Source: Verrucomicrobiales bacterium
Lineage (GTDB): Bacteria > Verrucomicrobiota > Verrucomicrobiia > Limisphaerales > CAIMTB01
Assembly (NCBI GenBank): GCA_016795425.1
Contig: JAEUHG010000024.1
Span: 62,001 to 126,000 of the forward strand
Reading direction: 5' to 3'
Length of the DNA stretch: 64,000 bases
Position numbers and translations under genes: made by a program
Shown: positions 27,641 through 33,345 of the stretch, piece by piece
Numbering within the stretch: position 1 is the stretch's first letter
Layout of the letters: each line of letters starts with the position of its first letter
Notes under the pieces: model-generated
Told to the model about the DNA's origin: nothing
Databases searched by the model: none
What the model saw: the letters and a program-made list of their open reading frames with translations, nothing else

Positions 27641-28102
27641 TCAAGCCCCCGCCTGATGGTCGTCGGCATCCACTGATCCGCCTAGTTCCGCGACACGCGC
27701 GCGCTTCCGGTCGCGACAGGTCTCCACTGCTTTGCGGAAACCATCCCGCAGTTCCTGGTCCGCGGGAATTCCTTCGAGCGTCAACTCGGGCGTCGTGGCA
27801 TCGCCGGTGGTGAGCACCAAAGTACCCCGCCCGAACATGCGCAGCAGAAAGGGCTGGAGGAAGGTGATGTCACGCACGCGGTAAAGCTCGAGTTCATCGG
27901 TGCGCTTGGAGAAGACCCCGCGCGTCAGGCGCAATCGTTCCGTGGTGATCTCAATGCGGTGATTGCGGCGTTGCACCCAACGTACCAGGGCCCACGGAAT
28001 CGGAATCACCAGAAGACATCCGAGGTTCAGCCAGAAATCAACCGCGGCCGACGGTGTGCCGGCCCACAGCACCTCTTCCGTTCGCTCGCTCATGCCCGCC
28101 AT
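27641..28102 (-). CDS. Membrane-anchored bacterial PH-domain (DUF304-like) protein
   Basis: The ATG at 28102 is preferred to a TTG at 28123. After a short polar start a hydrophobic segment (VDFWLNLGCLLVIPIPWALV, residues ~20-39) is followed by a bPH2-type domain: RNHRIEITTERLRLTRGVFSKRTDEL split over residues ~45-70, LELYRVRDITFLQPFLLR, GRGTLVLTTGDATTPE and a closing helix RDGFRKAVETCR. Such domains occur in small membrane proteins of unknown function. The gene is 57 bp past the fused polymerase gene, same strand, so co-transcription is possible. Confidence 0.82.
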   Translation of the reverse strand: MAGMSERTEEVLWAGTPSAAVDFWLNLGCLLVIPIPWALVRWVQRRNHRIEITTERLRLTRGVFSKRTDELELYRVRDITFLQPFLLRMFGRGTLVLTTGDATTPELTLEGIPADQELRDGFRKAVETCRDRKRARVAELGGSVDADDHQAGA

Positions 28103-28159
28103 CGTCTCCCTCCCAACCTCCAACGCGAGTCTGAAGTCGAAGCCGCCAGACCCCGAAAC

Positions 28160-31100
28160 CTACGGCCTCGCCACCGGCGCAACCCCCGTCGTCCGGGGTC
28201 GCCCAGCCCGCAACGCCCGCAGACTCCAACCCTTGCCGTTCTCAAACGGCTCCACTTTTGCCGTCACCTGAAGCACGGGATACCGCACCGTCGCCAACCC
28301 GTACGAGCGATAGGTGTCGGCAAACAAATCCGTCGACGCGATCTCCGTCCGATCGGCGATGGTCAGAAACTTCATCGGCTCACCCGTTATCTGGTGGTGG
28401 ATCCGCTGTTCGACCACCAGTCCGCACACCGTGATCTCCTGTCCCAAGTACTTCCCGGCATCGCGCAACGGACAGTAGCTCGACCAATGCACATCACCGA
28501 ATAACTCCAGAGGATGGCCGGACACGGTGAATCCCAGCAGGTCCCACTCCGCCTGAAGCCGCTCCTGGCGCGTCGGCTCCCGCAATTCCTTCACCGGCAA
28601 CCCCGTGAGCGACGGCGACGGCAGCAACCAGGCTTGGCCGGGCTCCAATCCCCGGGCCCGCACCGACTCCAAACGACGGGATTCCCAGAACAACTCCAGA
28701 CGACTGAGACCCAACACGTCGAGCGCCCCCACGCGCGTCATCACCTCGAGGTCCTCCGCCGATGGTTGCACGCGTCGCGCGAAATCCTCCAAGGAGGTGA
28801 AGGGCCCCTTGGCGCGTTCCACCAAGACCTGTGCCTGGGTCCGTTCGCCGACATGTTGGATCGCCGCGATGGGCACCCTGATGCCGTCAGGAGCCGACAC
28901 ATATCCCGGCCCGGGCTCCTGAATCGAAGGCGGAAGGATGCACAGCCCGAGTCGATGACACTCCAGGATGTACACGAGCGTGGAGTAGAATCCCTTGCCG
29001 TGAGTGAGGACTCCGGCCAGGAACTCGGCCGGATAATAGCGCTTCACCCAGGCGGCTTCATAGGCCTCGACGCCATACGCCGTCGAGTGGGCCTTGTTGA
29101 ACGCGTAGCCATTAAAGCTGGTCACCAAGTCCCAGACTTCGCGGGTCTTCTCGATCGGATGACCACGCGCGGCGGCCGCGGCGAAGAACTCGGGTTGAAT
29201 GGCCGCCACGAGCTCCTGCTTCTCCTTCACCAGACCGCGACGCAGCATGTCCGCGCGTCCCGCGGAAAGTCCGGCGTAGGCCTCGGCGATCTGGAGAATA
29301 TGCTCCTCGTAGACCACCAAACCGAACGTGCTGCGCAGACACGGCTCGAGACTTGGGTGCGGATACGACGGCGGTTCCATGCCTTGATACCGTCGCGTGA
29401 AGGCGAGTTTCTTGTTCTCGTTCGCCGCTCCCGGACGAATCACCGAGACGATCGCCACCAGCCCGTCGATCTCGCGAACGTTCGACATCCGGCTGAGGCC
29501 CAGCATGGCCGGGGATTCAATATGATGGACCGCGCGCGCGTTGCCGGAGGCTACCAGTTCCCAGACACCGGTATCCTTCCACGGGGCCAGACCGCCGAGA
29601 TCCACCCGGATCCCGTGATTCCGTTCGATCGACTTTTGCGCGTCGCGCAACACCGCGAGTCCGCCTTGCGCCAGGATGTCCATTTTTACCAGCCCCATCG
29701 ATTCCGTGACGTCCATGTCGTAGTGCGTGGTGCGCCAGCCCTTGTTCGACACGAACGTGGGTGTGAGTTCGTGCATCGGCTGACGACTCAGAACGACGCC
29801 GCATGGATGCATCTTGGGATTGCGCGGCCGACCCTCGAGCAGCGCCGCCAGTTCGAGCGCCGTGCGATACGGCTCCTCGTCGAGGGGCAGGTCGCGGGTC
29901 TCGATGCCGGCGGCGAGGGTGGCGCGAAGATCGCGTCCGCCGCTCCAGGGAAACCGATCGGTGAACCGCCGGATCTGCGCCTCGGCCAGGCCCAGCACCT
30001 TGCCGCAATCGCCGAATGCGCTCCTCGCCTGATAGGTCGAAAAACCCCCGACCACCGCGCAGTGCTGCTCGCCGAACCTGGCGAACAGCTGGTTCACCAC
30101 GTCGTCCTTCCGGTCATGTGGAAAATCGATGTCGATGTCCGGGAGCTTGTTCAGCGCCATCCGCTCCGGATTGAGAAACCGCTTGAAGTAGAGCTCGAAA
30201 CGAATCGGGCAGACATTGGAGATGCCCAGGCAATAGCAGACCAGCGAGTCCGCGGCCGACCCGCGCGTGATCCACTCGATCCCCGCCTCGCGACAATCCT
30301 GCAGCAGGCTCCACGTGTGCAGAAAGAGCGCCTCGTATCCGACATCGGCAATGATCTTCAGCTCCTCCTCGACCTGCCCCATCAACCCGGCTGCCCCCGA
30401 CCCGTAGCGCCGTCTCAACCCCTCGTGGACCAAGCGCCGCAAGAACGACGGCGCCGTCGAACCGTCCGTCGGCCGGTAGGCTGGAAACTGCGGCGGCCCG
30501 AACGGGAATTCGAAGGTACACGCCTCGGCAATCTCCCGTGTTCTTCGCAACACAGCCGGAGATCGATGGCACCACTCCGGCAAGTCGCACGGACGCCGAA
30601 AGGACAGGTCCTCGTCGCGCTTCTCCGGATGCCCCTGCTGCACCAGCGTCCGCGTCCGGACGCTCTGCAGAATGTTGAAGAGGCGACGTTCCGCGCTCGT
30701 CGCGAAATGCACCCGCGGAATCAGCACCCCCCGCGGATGATCCATGAGTTCCGGACGCGTGACCGCCCGATAGAATCGGTCGCCAAAAATGGTGGCCCAT
30801 CCGTCGTGATTGCCGACGGCGATCAGGTCGCCCGAGAACTCCCGGATCAGCGCCCGCGAAAACGATTGCCGATGTCGCGCCGCCACCGTCGCCTCGTCAT
30901 CCAACCCTGAATCGCCATCGCCGATCTCCCACCCCTCGCAGGCCTCGCCACCCGCCCGACCCGGGTTCCCACTCCCACCCACCGCAGTCGGCCGCGACAG
31001 CAACCGACAGAGATTGGCGTATCCGACCCGATTCCTGACGAACAGAAACAGCGGACCGTCCACGGTGCTCAGTTCGGCGCCGAAGATCGGCCGGACCCCG

Positions 31101-32518
31101 ATCGCGCGGGCAGCCAGGGCGAATTCACCCGCTCCGTGCAAATTGCCGCGGTCGGTCATCGCGACGGCGGGCATTTCCTCCGCTTTTGCCAGTTCGACGA
31201 TGCGCCGCGGCGACAATGTCGAATCGAGAAAGGTGTAGTGCGAATGGCAAGCCAGCGGAACGTAGGTCTCGCGCCTCGAGCGACCGACTCCCACCTGGAA
31301 CGGCGGCCGCGCCGGTTTCTTTGCGGAAGGCGCCTGGGTGGCATCGACGGGTCCGTCCCGTAGCACAAAGTCATGACCGCGCAGCAGAATCTCGTCCCCG
31401 AACCGATGCCGCAACGCATCCACCACCGACGCCAGCCGTTCCTTGCGCTGGCGGCTGGCCCCCTGCCCCGGCAAGTCCAGTTCGATCGAGAACCGGTCGT
31501 CGTACAGGTTCGAAAGTCTGAGTCCGACCAGCCGGAGGCTCACCCGACGTTGCCAGGCACGCTTCAGCAGCGATCCCAACCGCCCGTAGACATCCACCGA
31601 AAGGTTGCTGGGTTCGTGCAGGCTCTCGCTCGCCTGGGACTGGTCGTGGTCATTGTACTTCACCGTGACCGCGAGAGTGCGCACGGCCCTTCGATCCTCG
31701 CGGACCTTGGCAAACAATTCGTCCGCCATTTGGCGCAACACCGCCTGGGCATAGGTTTCATCGGTCAGATCCGCGGGGAAGGTCTGTTGAGCGGAATAGG
31801 TCTTCTGCGGCGTCCGCTCCGGCACCACCGGCCGGTCGTCGATCCCACGTGAAAACAACAGGAGCTGTCGGGCCTGCCCGCCCGCCACCATCTCCAACAG
31901 CTCCGCCGGCATCGTCGCCACCTGCCGAATCTCGGCCAGACCCGCCGTCATCAGGCGCTCGGCCAGTTTGGGCCCCACGCCAGGCAACCAACGGGTGGGC
32001 AAGGGATGAAGAAACGACACTTCCTCACCCGGAGGAATCACTCGGAAGCCCGCGGGTTTGTTTGCCTTGCTGGCAATCTGGCTGACCAGCTTGTTGGTGG
32101 CCACTCCCTCGCTGACGGTGATCTTCAATGACTGACGGATCGCCCGCTGCACGACCGCCGCGATGTCCGCCGCCGGGCGGTCGCGGTTGGGGGTCAGGTC
32201 GTAGTAACCTTCATCGAGGCCCTGTACCTCCACCAATGGCGTGTGATCCTCCGCATAGGCGAACATCAAGCGACTGAACTGCTCGTAACGCTCGAAATTC
32301 CCAGAGACCACAATGAGGCCCGGACACAGCTTCCGCGCCTGCATCGTCGGCATCGCCGCCCGGATACCGTAACGGCGCGCCTCGTAACTGGCACTGGCCA
32401 CCACGCCGCGACGTTCGCCCCCGACCACGATGGGTTTGCCCCGCAACCGCGAATCCGCCGCCTGCTCCACCGCGGCGAAGAAGGCATCGCCATCCAGATG
32501 AACGATGGCTCGAGACAT
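28160..32518 (-). CDS. Fused error-prone polymerase: Y-family DinB module + C-family DnaE2/ImuC module
   Basis: One uninterrupted 1452-codon frame encodes two DNA polymerases. Residues 1-385 are a full Y-family enzyme: HLDGDAFFAAVE with D9, steric gate F14, SYEARRYGIRAAMP, D102/E103 in GLDEGYYDL, SEGVATNKL, the HhH LPGVGPKLAERL and a little-finger domain. Residues 386-418 are a Pro/Ala/Lys linker. Residues ~419-1452 are a C-family polymerase of DnaE2 type: PHP domain CHSHYTFLD and TDRGN (R457 replaces the usual His), RGSAADSLVCYCLGI, catalytic PDIDIDF (D794, D796), D947 in GLVKMDIL, ADMLRRGLVK, GYAFNKAHSTAYG and an OB fold near 1360-1400. The tau-binding C-terminus of replicative DnaE is absent, as in DnaE2. 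Follows lexA by 148 bp with no LexA box of its own seen. Both active sites look intact. Confidence 0.95.
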   Translation of the reverse strand: MSRAIVHLDGDAFFAAVEQAADSRLRGKPIVVGGERRGVVASASYEARRYGIRAAMPTMQARKLCPGLIVVSGNFERYEQFSRLMFAYAEDHTPLVEVQGLDEGYYDLTPNRDRPAADIAAVVQRAIRQSLKITVSEGVATNKLVSQIASKANKPAGFRVIPPGEEVSFLHPLPTRWLPGVGPKLAERLMTAGLAEIRQVATMPAELLEMVAGGQARQLLLFSRGIDDRPVVPERTPQKTYSAQQTFPADLTDETYAQAVLRQMADELFAKVREDRRAVRTLAVTVKYNDHDQSQASESLHEPSNLSVDVYGRLGSLLKRAWQRRVSLRLVGLRLSNLYDDRFSIELDLPGQGASRQRKERLASVVDALRHRFGDEILLRGHDFVLRDGPVDATQAPSAKKPARPPFQVGVGRSRRETYVPLACHSHYTFLDSTLSPRRIVELAKAEEMPAVAMTDRGNLHGAGEFALAARAIGVRPIFGAELSTVDGPLFLFVRNRVGYANLCRLLSRPTAVGGSGNPGRAGGEACEGWEIGDGDSGLDDEATVAARHRQSFSRALIREFSGDLIAVGNHDGWATIFGDRFYRAVTRPELMDHPRGVLIPRVHFATSAERRLFNILQSVRTRTLVQQGHPEKRDEDLSFRRPCDLPEWCHRSPAVLRRTREIAEACTFEFPFGPPQFPAYRPTDGSTAPSFLRRLVHEGLRRRYGSGAAGLMGQVEEELKIIADVGYEALFLHTWSLLQDCREAGIEWITRGSAADSLVCYCLGISNVCPIRFELYFKRFLNPERMALNKLPDIDIDFPHDRKDDVVNQLFARFGEQHCAVVGGFSTYQARSAFGDCGKVLGLAEAQIRRFTDRFPWSGGRDLRATLAAGIETRDLPLDEEPYRTALELAALLEGRPRNPKMHPCGVVLSRQPMHELTPTFVSNKGWRTTHYDMDVTESMGLVKMDILAQGGLAVLRDAQKSIERNHGIRVDLGGLAPWKDTGVWELVASGNARAVHHIESPAMLGLSRMSNVREIDGLVAIVSVIRPGAANENKKLAFTRRYQGMEPPSYPHPSLEPCLRSTFGLVVYEEHILQIAEAYAGLSAGRADMLRRGLVKEKQELVAAIQPEFFAAAAARGHPIEKTREVWDLVTSFNGYAFNKAHSTAYGVEAYEAAWVKRYYPAEFLAGVLTHGKGFYSTLVYILECHRLGLCILPPSIQEPGPGYVSAPDGIRVPIAAIQHVGERTQAQVLVERAKGPFTSLEDFARRVQPSAEDLEVMTRVGALDVLGLSRLELFWESRRLESVRARGLEPGQAWLLPSPSLTGLPVKELREPTRQERLQAEWDLLGFTVSGHPLELFGDVHWSSYCPLRDAGKYLGQEITVCGLVVEQRIHHQITGEPMKFLTIADRTEIASTDLFADTYRSYGLATVRYPVLQVTAKVEPFENGKGWSLRALRAGRPRTTGVAPVARP

Positions 32519-32666
32519 GGGATGGGAAGAGTGGTTAGGGAGGCGGGATGGGGAGGAAAGGAAGACGAGGAACGCAAAGTGCGTGTCGACACGCTGACAA
32601 CCTGGCTCTCATGGGCTTTCGTCCCACCTCTTCCCACTTCCCCACGCACCCCTCCCCACCTCGCCC

Positions 32667-33302
32667 TCACCCGGCGCGCTTCCGAATCAGCGCCACCATG
32701 ACGCCTTGGATCACCAGTTCCGCGGCGGGGATCAGATCCGGGTACTTCGGATTTTCGGCGCGCAGAAACGGTCGGCCTCGTTGATTCAGAAATGTCTTCA
32801 ACGTGCTCTGGCCGTCGATCAAGGCCGCCACCACGTCGCCCGGCCGCGGCTCCTTCCCGTGCTCGATGATCACCACGTCCCCCGACACGATATGTTTCCC
32901 GATCATTGAATCGCCCGCGATCCGCAGGGCGAACGTCCGACTGGTGGGCCGTATCCCGAGCGTCTCGATATCAACACTGACACAGCCCTCGGTCTCCTGC
33001 TCTCGATCCGCTGGCAAACCCGCCGGGATACTGCCCACCAACGGAATGTGCGCCATCCTCACCGGCCGACCCCGCACGGCGGATCGCAGCGTGATCGACC
33101 GATTCTTGCCGGCTTCGGTAGCCAGGAATCCGCGTTGGCGCAGGGCTTCGATGTGTTTGGAGACGGCGTTGACGCTGGCCACGCCGAGCGCCGCGCCGAT
33201 CTCGCGATAGGACGGCGGCGGCTGACCTGCGGCCCGGCGGGATTCCAGCAGCTGCAGGATCTCCCGCTGGCGCGGGGTGAGGTTGGGTTCTAGGGTGAAC
33301 AT
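32667..33302 (-). CDS. lexA: LexA SOS repressor
   Basis: From the ATG at 33302 the protein is 211 aa. The N-terminal winged helix-turn-helix is LTPRQREILQLL ... PPPSYREIGAALGVASVNAVSKHIEALRQRG, the self-cleavage site is A94-G95 in GSIPAGLP, the catalytic Ser is S132 in GDSM and the Lys is K169 in STLKTF. A GTG at 33323 could add seven residues; I prefer the ATG because the operator palindrome and a possible promoter then sit in the right order. It represses the downstream fused polymerase gene by inference, and itself through the box over its start. Confidence 0.97.
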   Translation of the reverse strand: MFTLEPNLTPRQREILQLLESRRAAGQPPPSYREIGAALGVASVNAVSKHIEALRQRGFLATEAGKNRSITLRSAVRGRPVRMAHIPLVGSIPAGLPADREQETEGCVSVDIETLGIRPTSRTFALRIAGDSMIGKHIVSGDVVIIEHGKEPRPGDVVAALIDGQSTLKTFLNQRGRPFLRAENPKYPDLIPAAELVIQGVMVALIRKRAG

Positions 33303-33312
33303 ATGTTCACCC
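33293..33312 (-). promoter_or_regulatory. LexA operator (SOS box) over the lexA start codon
   Basis: A perfect 20-bp palindrome, with core GAAC-ATAT-GTTC, spans 33293-33312. This is the Gram-positive-type SOS-box core (GAAC-N4-GTTC). The lexA ATG (33300-33302) lies inside it. I found no second copy in the 148-bp gap before the fused polymerase gene, which suggests a single control point for lexA and the polymerase. Confidence 0.85.
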
Positions 33313-33316
33313 GCCC

Positions 33317-33345
33317 ACTCCACACCCGGAACCCGGCCCGGTCAA
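33317..33345 (-). promoter_or_regulatory. Possible lexA promoter (-35 TTGACC, -10 TGGAGT)
   Basis: On the minus strand TTGACC (33340-33345) is separated by exactly 17 bp from TGGAGT (33317-33322). The -35 is good, the -10 matches only half of TATAAT. Transcription would start near 33310, inside the SOS box, giving an almost leaderless mRNA for the ATG at 33302. Confidence 0.35.

What the first reader, a model, noticed from the sequence alone, without database searches (positions are those of the whole stretch)
28160..32518. One protein carries two complete DNA polymerases (Y-family DinB + C-family DnaE2)
A single 1452-codon frame encodes a full Pol IV-type polymerase (residues 1-385), a ~33-residue linker and a full DnaE2/ImuC-type polymerase (419-1452). 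Bacteria that use induced mutagenesis normally encode these as separate proteins (ImuB plus DnaE2, or DinB) that meet on the sliding clamp. Joining them fixes a 1:1 ratio and could let lesion insertion (Y) hand the primer end to extension (C) inside one chain. I do not know of a characterised protein with this architecture; that is a statement about my knowledge, not a database result.
Basis: partly seen in the sequence, partly recalled or inferred. Interest (0 to 1): 0.93.

Follow-up and report, generated by a model that had tools for sequence, protein, structure and literature searches.

The report
Two DNA polymerases in one chain
Many Verrucomicrobiota bacteria carry, next to the DNA-damage repressor gene lexA, a single gene that joins two different DNA-copying enzymes, each with its catalytic residues intact, into one protein, which likely works as a damage-induced machine for copying past DNA lesions; in some other bacteria the same two kinds of enzyme are separate proteins.

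Summary
In detail: 28160-32518 (-) is one uninterrupted 1452-codon frame with a Y-family (DinB-like) and a C-family (DnaE-like) polymerase. It is not an artefact: 72 of the 80 best genome loci fetched encode the same fusion in one frame, 66 of them with lexA just upstream. In 110 full-length fusions the catalytic acids of both modules are essentially invariant, while the PHP (proofreading) site is broken. The join is more than a linker: it holds a conserved tail (…FGDEILLRGHD…) that resembles the RecA oligomerisation motif, though only weakly by statistics, then a predicted disordered tether. The usual clamp-binding peptide of the Y module is absent in all 110. The C module is not ImuC/DnaE2A; it groups with the DnaE-type polymerase that Bacteroidetes encode beside an active PolY. 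So this looks like a one-chain version of the predicted DnaE2-PolY-RecA mutasome, likely under LexA control. Hand-over between the two sites is plausible but untested; several lineages have the two parts unlinked and mostly keep both, so fusion is not strictly required. Six paper searches and the passages read showed no mention of the fusion.

The parts
28160..32518 (-). Fused Y-family + C-family DNA polymerase gene, 1452 codons
31484..32518 (-). Y-family (DinB-like) module, residues 1-345; catalytic D9 (32492-32494), D102/E103 (32210-32215), steric-gate region F13/F14 (roles recalled from DinB)
   Evidence: conservation
31358..31447 (-). Conserved tail resembling the RecA N-terminal motif, residues 358-387 (contains RHRFGDEILLRGHD)
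   Evidence: predicted helix 353-373, then helix 381-388
31265..31357 (-). Variable, predicted disordered tether, residues 388-418
   Evidence: 23% mean identity to the window protein; length 26-131 over residues 387-418 in 110 fusions; pLDDT<50 at 395-413
28163..31264 (-). C-family (DnaE2-like) module, residues 419-1452; catalytic D796, D798, D947
   Evidence: trees
28622..28636 (-). Q-A-W-L-L (1295-1299), aligned with the Q of E. coli DnaE QADMF: candidate clamp-binding peptide (inferred)
   Evidence: Q.WL+hydrophobic in 70 of 110
32667..33302 (-). lexA, upstream in the likely operon (ATG at 33302; the longest ORF starts at 33323)
   Evidence: TIGR00498 146.7 bits, cut-off 110.95
33294..33311 (.). 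Perfect dyad GGTGAACATATGTTCACC over the lexA start codon: likely LexA operator

Best explanation
This gene encodes one protein made of a DinB-like and a DnaE2-like DNA polymerase, both with intact catalytic residues, and it likely acts as a LexA-controlled, RecA-regulated one-chain translesion machine in which the first polymerase would insert opposite a lesion and the second would extend. Steps: (1) shown by sequence: two polymerases in one frame, near-invariant catalytic acids in both, broken PHP site, lexA directly upstream in most relatives, a dyad enriched at the lexA start and not at the fusion start. (2) Inferred: lexA and the fusion are co-transcribed and induced when LexA is cleaved. 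(3) Inferred from a weak but well-placed resemblance: the tail between the modules docks on RecA, as proposed for PolY-RecA and DnaE2-PolY-RecA complexes. (4) Inferred: the chain holds the sliding clamp through the C module, because the usual clamp peptide of the Y module is gone. (5) Untested: insertion by Y and extension by C without release of the chain.
For: Catalytic acids kept: D9 in 109 of 110 (one gap), D102, E103, D796, D798, D947 in 110 of 110; in 72 genome loci no substitution at these six, only gaps (D9 in L083, L095, L096; D102/E103 in L083, L096). PHP site broken: of seven positions compared with the own DnaE1, H22, H56 and D222 are each replaced in 109 of 110, H24 in 48, H224 in 13, while D55 (109) and E81 (110) remain (in line); PMC12926913 reports altered PHP sites for DnaE2 (section 14). 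lexA within 800 nt upstream on the same strand in 66 of 72 fused genome loci; 4 of the 6 without have under 620 nt of contig there. Perfect 7/7-arm dyad at the lexA start in 30 of 67 loci (0.45 expected), at the fusion start in 0 of 69 (0.40 expected), inside lexA in 3 of 69 (0.80 expected). RecA-like tail: a profile of residues 361-384 has its best place in each of two RecAs exactly at the RecA N-terminal motif (own 34-57, E. coli 10-33; 79 and 17 of 2000 shuffles as good); hhalign lands on the same place (E 0.056 and 0.033; 0 of 60 shuffles as good each). G381-H382-D383 are in 110 of 110 fusions and in the 7 split Y proteins. Clamp peptide Q[LMF].[LMIF][FW] in the Y tail: 0 of 110 fusions, 0 of 64 scored genome fusions, 0 of 7 split Y proteins, 11 of 12 standalone verrucomicrobial PolYs. 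Trees: the fused C modules join Bacteroidetes/Desulfosarcina DnaE (SH-aLRT 100 and 99). Two of three Bacteroidetes plasmids encode PolY and DnaE in the same order with a 4-bp or 1-bp overlap (the third has a 299-nt gap), likely the arrangement that PMC12926913 calls DnaE2B-PolY-RecA (section 20).
Against: Fusion is dispensable: the Y gene stands after lexA without the C module in G480, G481, G472 and G479, which keep a C module elsewhere (that of G472 holds stops), and G055 is split too; G655 kept Y and shows no C module. The RecA resemblance is weak: hhalign probability is only 1.0-1.5%, both RecA scores with the profile are negative, and five unrelated frames of the window score higher. In the 72-locus set GHD is not invariant (G381 68, H382 72, D383 70). 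The clamp pattern misses some real variants: it also misses E. coli DinB (QLVLGL) and the own DinB (QLHLAL), so a weak peptide such as ELPL in the fusions is not excluded. The own genome also has an imuA-imuB-dnaE2-like cassette, whereas PMC12926913 reports DnaE2B in genomes without ImuA or ImuB. The exact dyad is absent at the own recA and imuA. With split relatives added the trees need 5 changes between fused and split in each module tree, so a single fusion event is possible but not shown. No expression, binding or enzyme data. The structure model has low confidence in the Y palm and holds no RecA or clamp.
Confidence: 0.55

Rival explanations
1. Co-supply without hand-over: the two polymerases are joined only to be made together in equal amounts, and each works on its own lesions.
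For: Unlinked versions with both parts kept in 5 of 6 such genomes; tether length varies from 26 to 131 residues over 387-418, so no fixed geometry is kept.
Against: The usual clamp peptide of the Y module is absent in every fusion scored, which suggests that it depends on its partner; long fused frames are kept in 84 of 320 genomes of the order (my count from the listing).
Confidence: 0.27
2. Polyprotein: the chain is cut in the tether in cells, giving ordinary separate PolY and DnaE2 subunits.
For: Variable, predicted disordered tether; split relatives exist.
Against: The tether is poorly conserved (23% identity), so a fixed sequence-specific cutting site is unlikely.
Confidence: 0.09
3. Scaffold: the Y half is an inactive, ImuB-like platform and only the C half polymerises.
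For: ImuB and the Streptomyces PolY partner of DnaE2 are inactive (PMC12926913 introduction passage and section 20).
Against: All three Y catalytic acids kept in 109-110 of 110; passes the Pol IV equivalog cut-off.
Confidence: 0.06
4. Artefact of assembly or a single-strain mutation.
For: None found.
Against: Same one-frame fusion in 72 of 80 genome loci, among them a record titled SCGC (single-cell by its title, L081), a 1.7-Mb contig (L100), and a one-contig genome outside that set (G468).
Confidence: 0.01

Closest known systems
Predicted DnaE2B-PolY-RecA mutasome of Bacteroidetes (PMC12926913; PMC6511836)
   Same: Active PolY plus a DnaE2-type polymerase in that gene order, RecA-NT-like tail after the Y module; C modules are sister groups
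   Different: There separate genes, in two of three plasmids overlapping by 1-4 bp, and PolY tails read QIDLF/QINLF; here one chain, peptide absent, and the genome also has an imuA-imuB-dnaE2-like cassette
ImuA-ImuB-DnaE2 (ImuC) mutasome
   Same: Y-family plus C-family protein, PHP site broken
   Different: ImuB is inactive and separate; the fusion C half fails the DnaE2 model cut-off; the same genome carries such a cassette at G000:C14
DinB / Pol IV
   Same: Y module passes NF002677 and keeps catalytic residues
   Different: Fused to a C-family polymerase; no standard clamp peptide after the little finger
Pol V (UmuD'2C-RecA)
   Same: Y polymerase thought to bind RecA through a RecA-NT motif (PMC12926913, section 22)
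   Different: No UmuD' part in the chain; a second polymerase instead

Membership tests
DinB / Pol IV (Y family) | Score over NF002677 cut-off (256) | tested here: met
   276.1 bits, residues 2-341
DinB / Pol IV (Y family) | Catalytic D9, D102, E103 and little-finger domain | tested here: met
   109, 110 and 110 of 110; IMS_C
DinB / Pol IV (Y family) | Clamp pentapeptide of QLxLF type after the little finger | tested here: not met
   0 of 110 fusions, 11 of 12 standalone relatives; the pattern also misses E. coli DinB and the own DinB
DnaE2A / ImuC | Score over NF004225 cut-off (939) | tested here: not met
   484.5; own DnaE2A 1219.9, Novosphingobium 1316.4
DnaE2A / ImuC | Works beside ImuA and an inactive ImuB | tested here: not met
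   Y half keeps its catalytic acids; the imuA-imuB-dnaE2-like cassette is elsewhere, G000:C14
DnaE2 in the wide sense | Broken PHP active site | tested here: met
   three of seven positions compared are lost in 109 of 110 each
DnaE2B-PolY-RecA system | C module groups with the Bacteroidetes DnaE encoded beside PolY | tested here: met
   SH-aLRT 100 and 99 in quick trees with few references and flagged long branches; that these references are DnaE2B is inferred
DnaE2B-PolY-RecA system | RecA-NT motif after the Y module | tested here: inconclusive
   right place in two RecAs, 79 and 17 of 2000 shuffles, hhalign E 0.03-0.06 but probability 1-1.5%
DnaE2B-PolY-RecA system | Genome lacks ImuA and ImuB | tested here: not met
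   G000:C14 cassette; its ImuA scores 49.8 bits, below the model cut-off of 150
DnaE2B-PolY-RecA system | Physical complex with RecA | not testable with these tools
   no complex modelling or binding assay
LexA/SOS regulon | LexA operator at the operon start | tested here: inconclusive
   dyad strongly enriched at the lexA start; no binding data, and no exact copy at the own recA or imuA

The most novel reading that the evidence does not exclude
A natural one-chain translesion enzyme in which a Y-family inserter and a C-family extender, two unrelated polymerase folds, share one RecA-switched, LexA-induced polypeptide and hand over the primer end without leaving the DNA.
Probability: 0.38. Interest if true: 0.88.

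Novelty: new variant of a known kind. Interest (0 to 1): 0.68.

Why it matters
Models of bacterial induced mutagenesis rest on separate polymerases that meet on the clamp, and it is hard to tell who inserts and who extends. A chain with a fixed 1:1 pair, a RecA-like tail between the modules and natural split versions in sister lineages makes the inserter-extender question directly testable. It also suggests that the predicted DnaE2-PolY-RecA complex is close enough in cells to have been fused. Where sources name these proteins they mostly call them DNA polymerase IV, DNA polymerase III alpha/PolC or error-prone DNA polymerase (names), so the architecture is easy to miss.

Tried and rejected
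Artefact: rejected. ImuC label: rejected. Inactive Y scaffold: unlikely by residues. Recalled verrucomicrobial LexA consensus TGTTC-N4-GAACA in the window: 15 matches with up to 2 mismatches, 21.1 expected, so uninformative there; exact copies stand before lexA in 13 of 67 loci, 0.015 expected. The window's own dyad elsewhere in its genome: exact GTGAAC-N4-GTTCAC at 3 places in 8.8 Mb, lexA and two others, not at recA or imuA. Viral contigs: 5 stretches matched a pattern, none a relative. Papers: six searches listed no paper on such a fusion; the library lacks most subscription papers and no supplements were read. The 2016 paper on the verrucomicrobial LexA motif is recalled, not held. A script pick for a further PHP position fell outside the PHP domain and was discarded; seven of nine positions were compared.

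Rows dropped: 8 duplicate loci, loci without lexA and loci with too little upstream DNA before the dyad counts. Of the 8 C-only loci, 7 run off the contig start; the eighth, L127, lies in a genome whose Y gene stands at the same contig number, coordinates and score as that of G479. Six long-branch PolY/ImuB rows were left out of the second Y tree and two DnaE2 rows out of the second C tree; the first trees held them. The window's Y and C pieces were first cut from a gapped copy and corrected before any tree. Eight of 72 genome fusions were not scored for the clamp peptide because no GH[DQ] was found in range.
Full report
OBSERVATION. The frame 28160-32518 on the minus strand is open for 1452 codons. 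Pfam places IMS and IMS_C in the first 340 residues and PHP, pol III alpha, fingers and HHH_6 in residues 423-1275. Solved relatives split the same way: a Pol IV chain matches 1-384 (7yll_A, E 7.4e-57) and a pol III alpha chain matches the C half (2hpi_A, best stretch 711-1423, E 1.1e-108).

SPREAD. A search with the Y half, limited by the tool to proteins of about 799-2541 aa, gave 1297 hits at E<=1e-3 among the 7990 candidates scored; only the best 120 were listed, all with Y-family and PHP domains, 111 by my count with all six. A scan of a collection with one genome per species found 202 relatives in 222 stretches and kept the best 80; 72 encode both halves in one frame and 8 the C half only, 7 of which run off the contig. 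By title 76 of the 80 are Verrucomicrobiota (genus-to-phylum placement recalled), two are only 'bacterium' and two, from one bin, say Klebsiella pneumoniae. In the window's order, 112 of 320 genomes match the Y half at E<=1e-95; 84 of the 320 have it in a frame of 1200 aa or more (my count from the listing; short frames include both contig ends and true splits). In an even sample of 387 genomes of the phylum, 350 match the Y half in some way, but among the listed rows only the own genome, G395 and G244 show it in a long frame; G351 is fused up to its contig end. In a class sample of 286 genomes, 55 match the C half at E<=1e-120, some at only 32-35% identity, which are other DnaEs. Other phyla were covered only; none of the 40 plasmid records listed is annotated as one gene over both halves, and a few have no annotation there.

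ANATOMY. In 110 full-length fusions, D9 is kept in 109 (one gap) and D102, E103, D796, D798 and D947 in all; in 72 genome loci the three Y acids show gaps in two or three rows and none of the six a substitution. The PHP site is broken: the equivalents of own-DnaE1 H22, H56 and D222 are each replaced in 109 of 110, while D55 and E81 remain (seven of nine positions compared). Between the modules lies a conserved tail; G381, H382 and D383 are in 110 of 110, and in 68, 72 and 70 of the 72 genome loci. A profile of residues 361-384, scanned over the own RecA and E. coli RecA, lands first on the N-terminal oligomerisation motif in both (own 34-57, E. coli 10-33), with 79 and 17 of 2000 shuffles as good; but the scores are negative, and five unrelated frames of the window score higher. 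hhalign with residues 340-392 lands on the same place (E 0.056 and 0.033, probability 1.0 and 1.5%), and 0 of 60 shuffles match it in each case. So the RecA-NT reading is well placed but statistically weak. PMC6511836 and PMC12926913 name such a motif RecA-NT in many PolYs and propose that it binds RecA (passages; sections 20 and 22). After it comes a tether, 23% identical on average to the window's, 26-131 residues over positions 387-418, with pLDDT under 50 at 395-413. The model's Y palm has low confidence too, so the model is not used for more.

CLAMP. A pattern Q[LMF].[LMIF][FW] is present after the little finger in 11 of 12 standalone verrucomicrobial PolYs and in 0 of 110 fusions, 0 of 64 scored genome fusions and 0 of 7 split Y proteins of the same clade. 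Bacteroidetes PolYs read QIDLF or QINLF in 3 of 3 by eye, which the pattern itself excludes; it also misses E. coli DinB QLVLGL and the own DinB QLHLAL, so it is not a full test. Of the 12 standalone PolYs, 7 come from genomes checked for a C module. At the site of E. coli DnaE QADMF the fusions have Q-x-W-L-hydrophobic in 70 of 110. I infer that clamp contact moved to the C half.

CONTEXT. lexA lies within 800 nt upstream on the same strand in 66 of 72 genome fusions, within 54 nt in 50 of them; four of the six exceptions have under 620 nt of contig there, and in L075 and L080 no lexA was recognised although sequence is present. A perfect dyad stands at the lexA start in 30 of 67 loci (0.45 expected) and at least 6 of 7 arm pairs in 51 (8.15 expected); at the fusion start 0 of 69 are perfect (0.40 expected) and 8 reach 6 of 7 (7.6 expected); inside lexA 3 of 69 and 14 of 69 (0.80 and 9.65 expected). 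In the window it is GGTGAACATATGTTCACC over the lexA ATG. The gap between lexA and the fusion is 148 nt here.

EVOLUTION. In the first trees fused Y modules and fused C modules each form one clade, with one split pair and one C-only row inside (SH-aLRT 98 and 100). The C clade joins Bacteroidetes and Desulfosarcina DnaE, the Y clade verrucomicrobial standalone PolYs and then Bacteroidetes PolY. Bacteroidetes dinB and dnaE overlap by 4 bp in L129 and 1 bp in L132 and are 299 nt apart in L131. With split relatives added, a tandem lexA-like/Y/C unit (L151) lies at the base of the Y tree but beside the fused L037 in the C tree, and other splits are nested inside the fusion clade; each tree needs 5 changes between the states. 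One fusion with later splits is the simplest story but is not proven. Of six genomes with the Y gene unlinked, five keep a C module elsewhere (that of G472 holds stops) and G655 shows none; of ten genomes with a standalone PolY of about 42-46% identity, none has a C-half match above 34% at E<=1e-90. So this kind of Y and this kind of C usually go together, fused or not.

OWN GENOME. It also has DnaE1 (C264), a standalone DinB (C261) and an imuA-imuB-dnaE2-like cassette (C14; ImuA 49.8 bits to NF033429, below its cut-off of 150; IMS and IMS_C in the ImuB; DnaE2 1219.9 bits). The fusion is thus an additional system.

LITERATURE. PMC12926913 (abstract, outline, sections 14, 20, 21, 22 read; passages searched) lists 11 mutasome types over 3070 genomes; the parts read, and the main-text search in which 'fused' occurs twice (DnaQ fused to DnaE1, a YqjX-like fusion) and 'fusion' not at all, name no PolY-DnaE2 fusion. 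PMC6511836, PMC3919608, PMC3765255 and PMC8565304 were searched for passages only. Supplements were not read.

VERDICT. A real, widespread fusion of two polymerase families with intact catalytic residues, beside lexA, found here almost only in records titled Verrucomicrobiota; a new variant of the predicted DnaE2-PolY-RecA mutasome. LexA induction, RecA docking, clamp transfer and hand-over are inferences.

Noticed in passing
G000:C14 (L138:3658-9105): The same genome carries an imuA-imuB-dnaE2-like cassette, so two DnaE2-type systems coexist.
   Followed up: yes
window 32581-32594: A perfect 14-bp palindrome GCGTGTCGACACGC lies in the rather long 148-nt gap between lexA and the fusion.
   Followed up: no
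window 27641-28123 (-): A 160-aa bacterial PH-domain protein (bPH_2) starts 36 nt after the fusion on the same strand; possibly in the same operon.
   Followed up: partly
G662 (C31, C41) and G541 (C8, C70): Two genomes carry two long-frame copies each.
   Followed up: no
L162 (G655): This genome has lexA-Y but no detectable C module, and its Y tail reads AQLALD, closer to a clamp peptide than in the fusions; one case only.
   Followed up: partly
L084, L102: Two loci of one genome bin titled Klebsiella pneumoniae hold this fusion at 57-58% identity to the window's; the title looks mislabelled.
   Followed up: no
L171 and L170: The only other two exact genome copies of the GTGAACNNNNGTTCAC dyad lie just upstream of a TetR-like ORF (by eye) and inside an ORF; meaning unknown.
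   Followed up: partly
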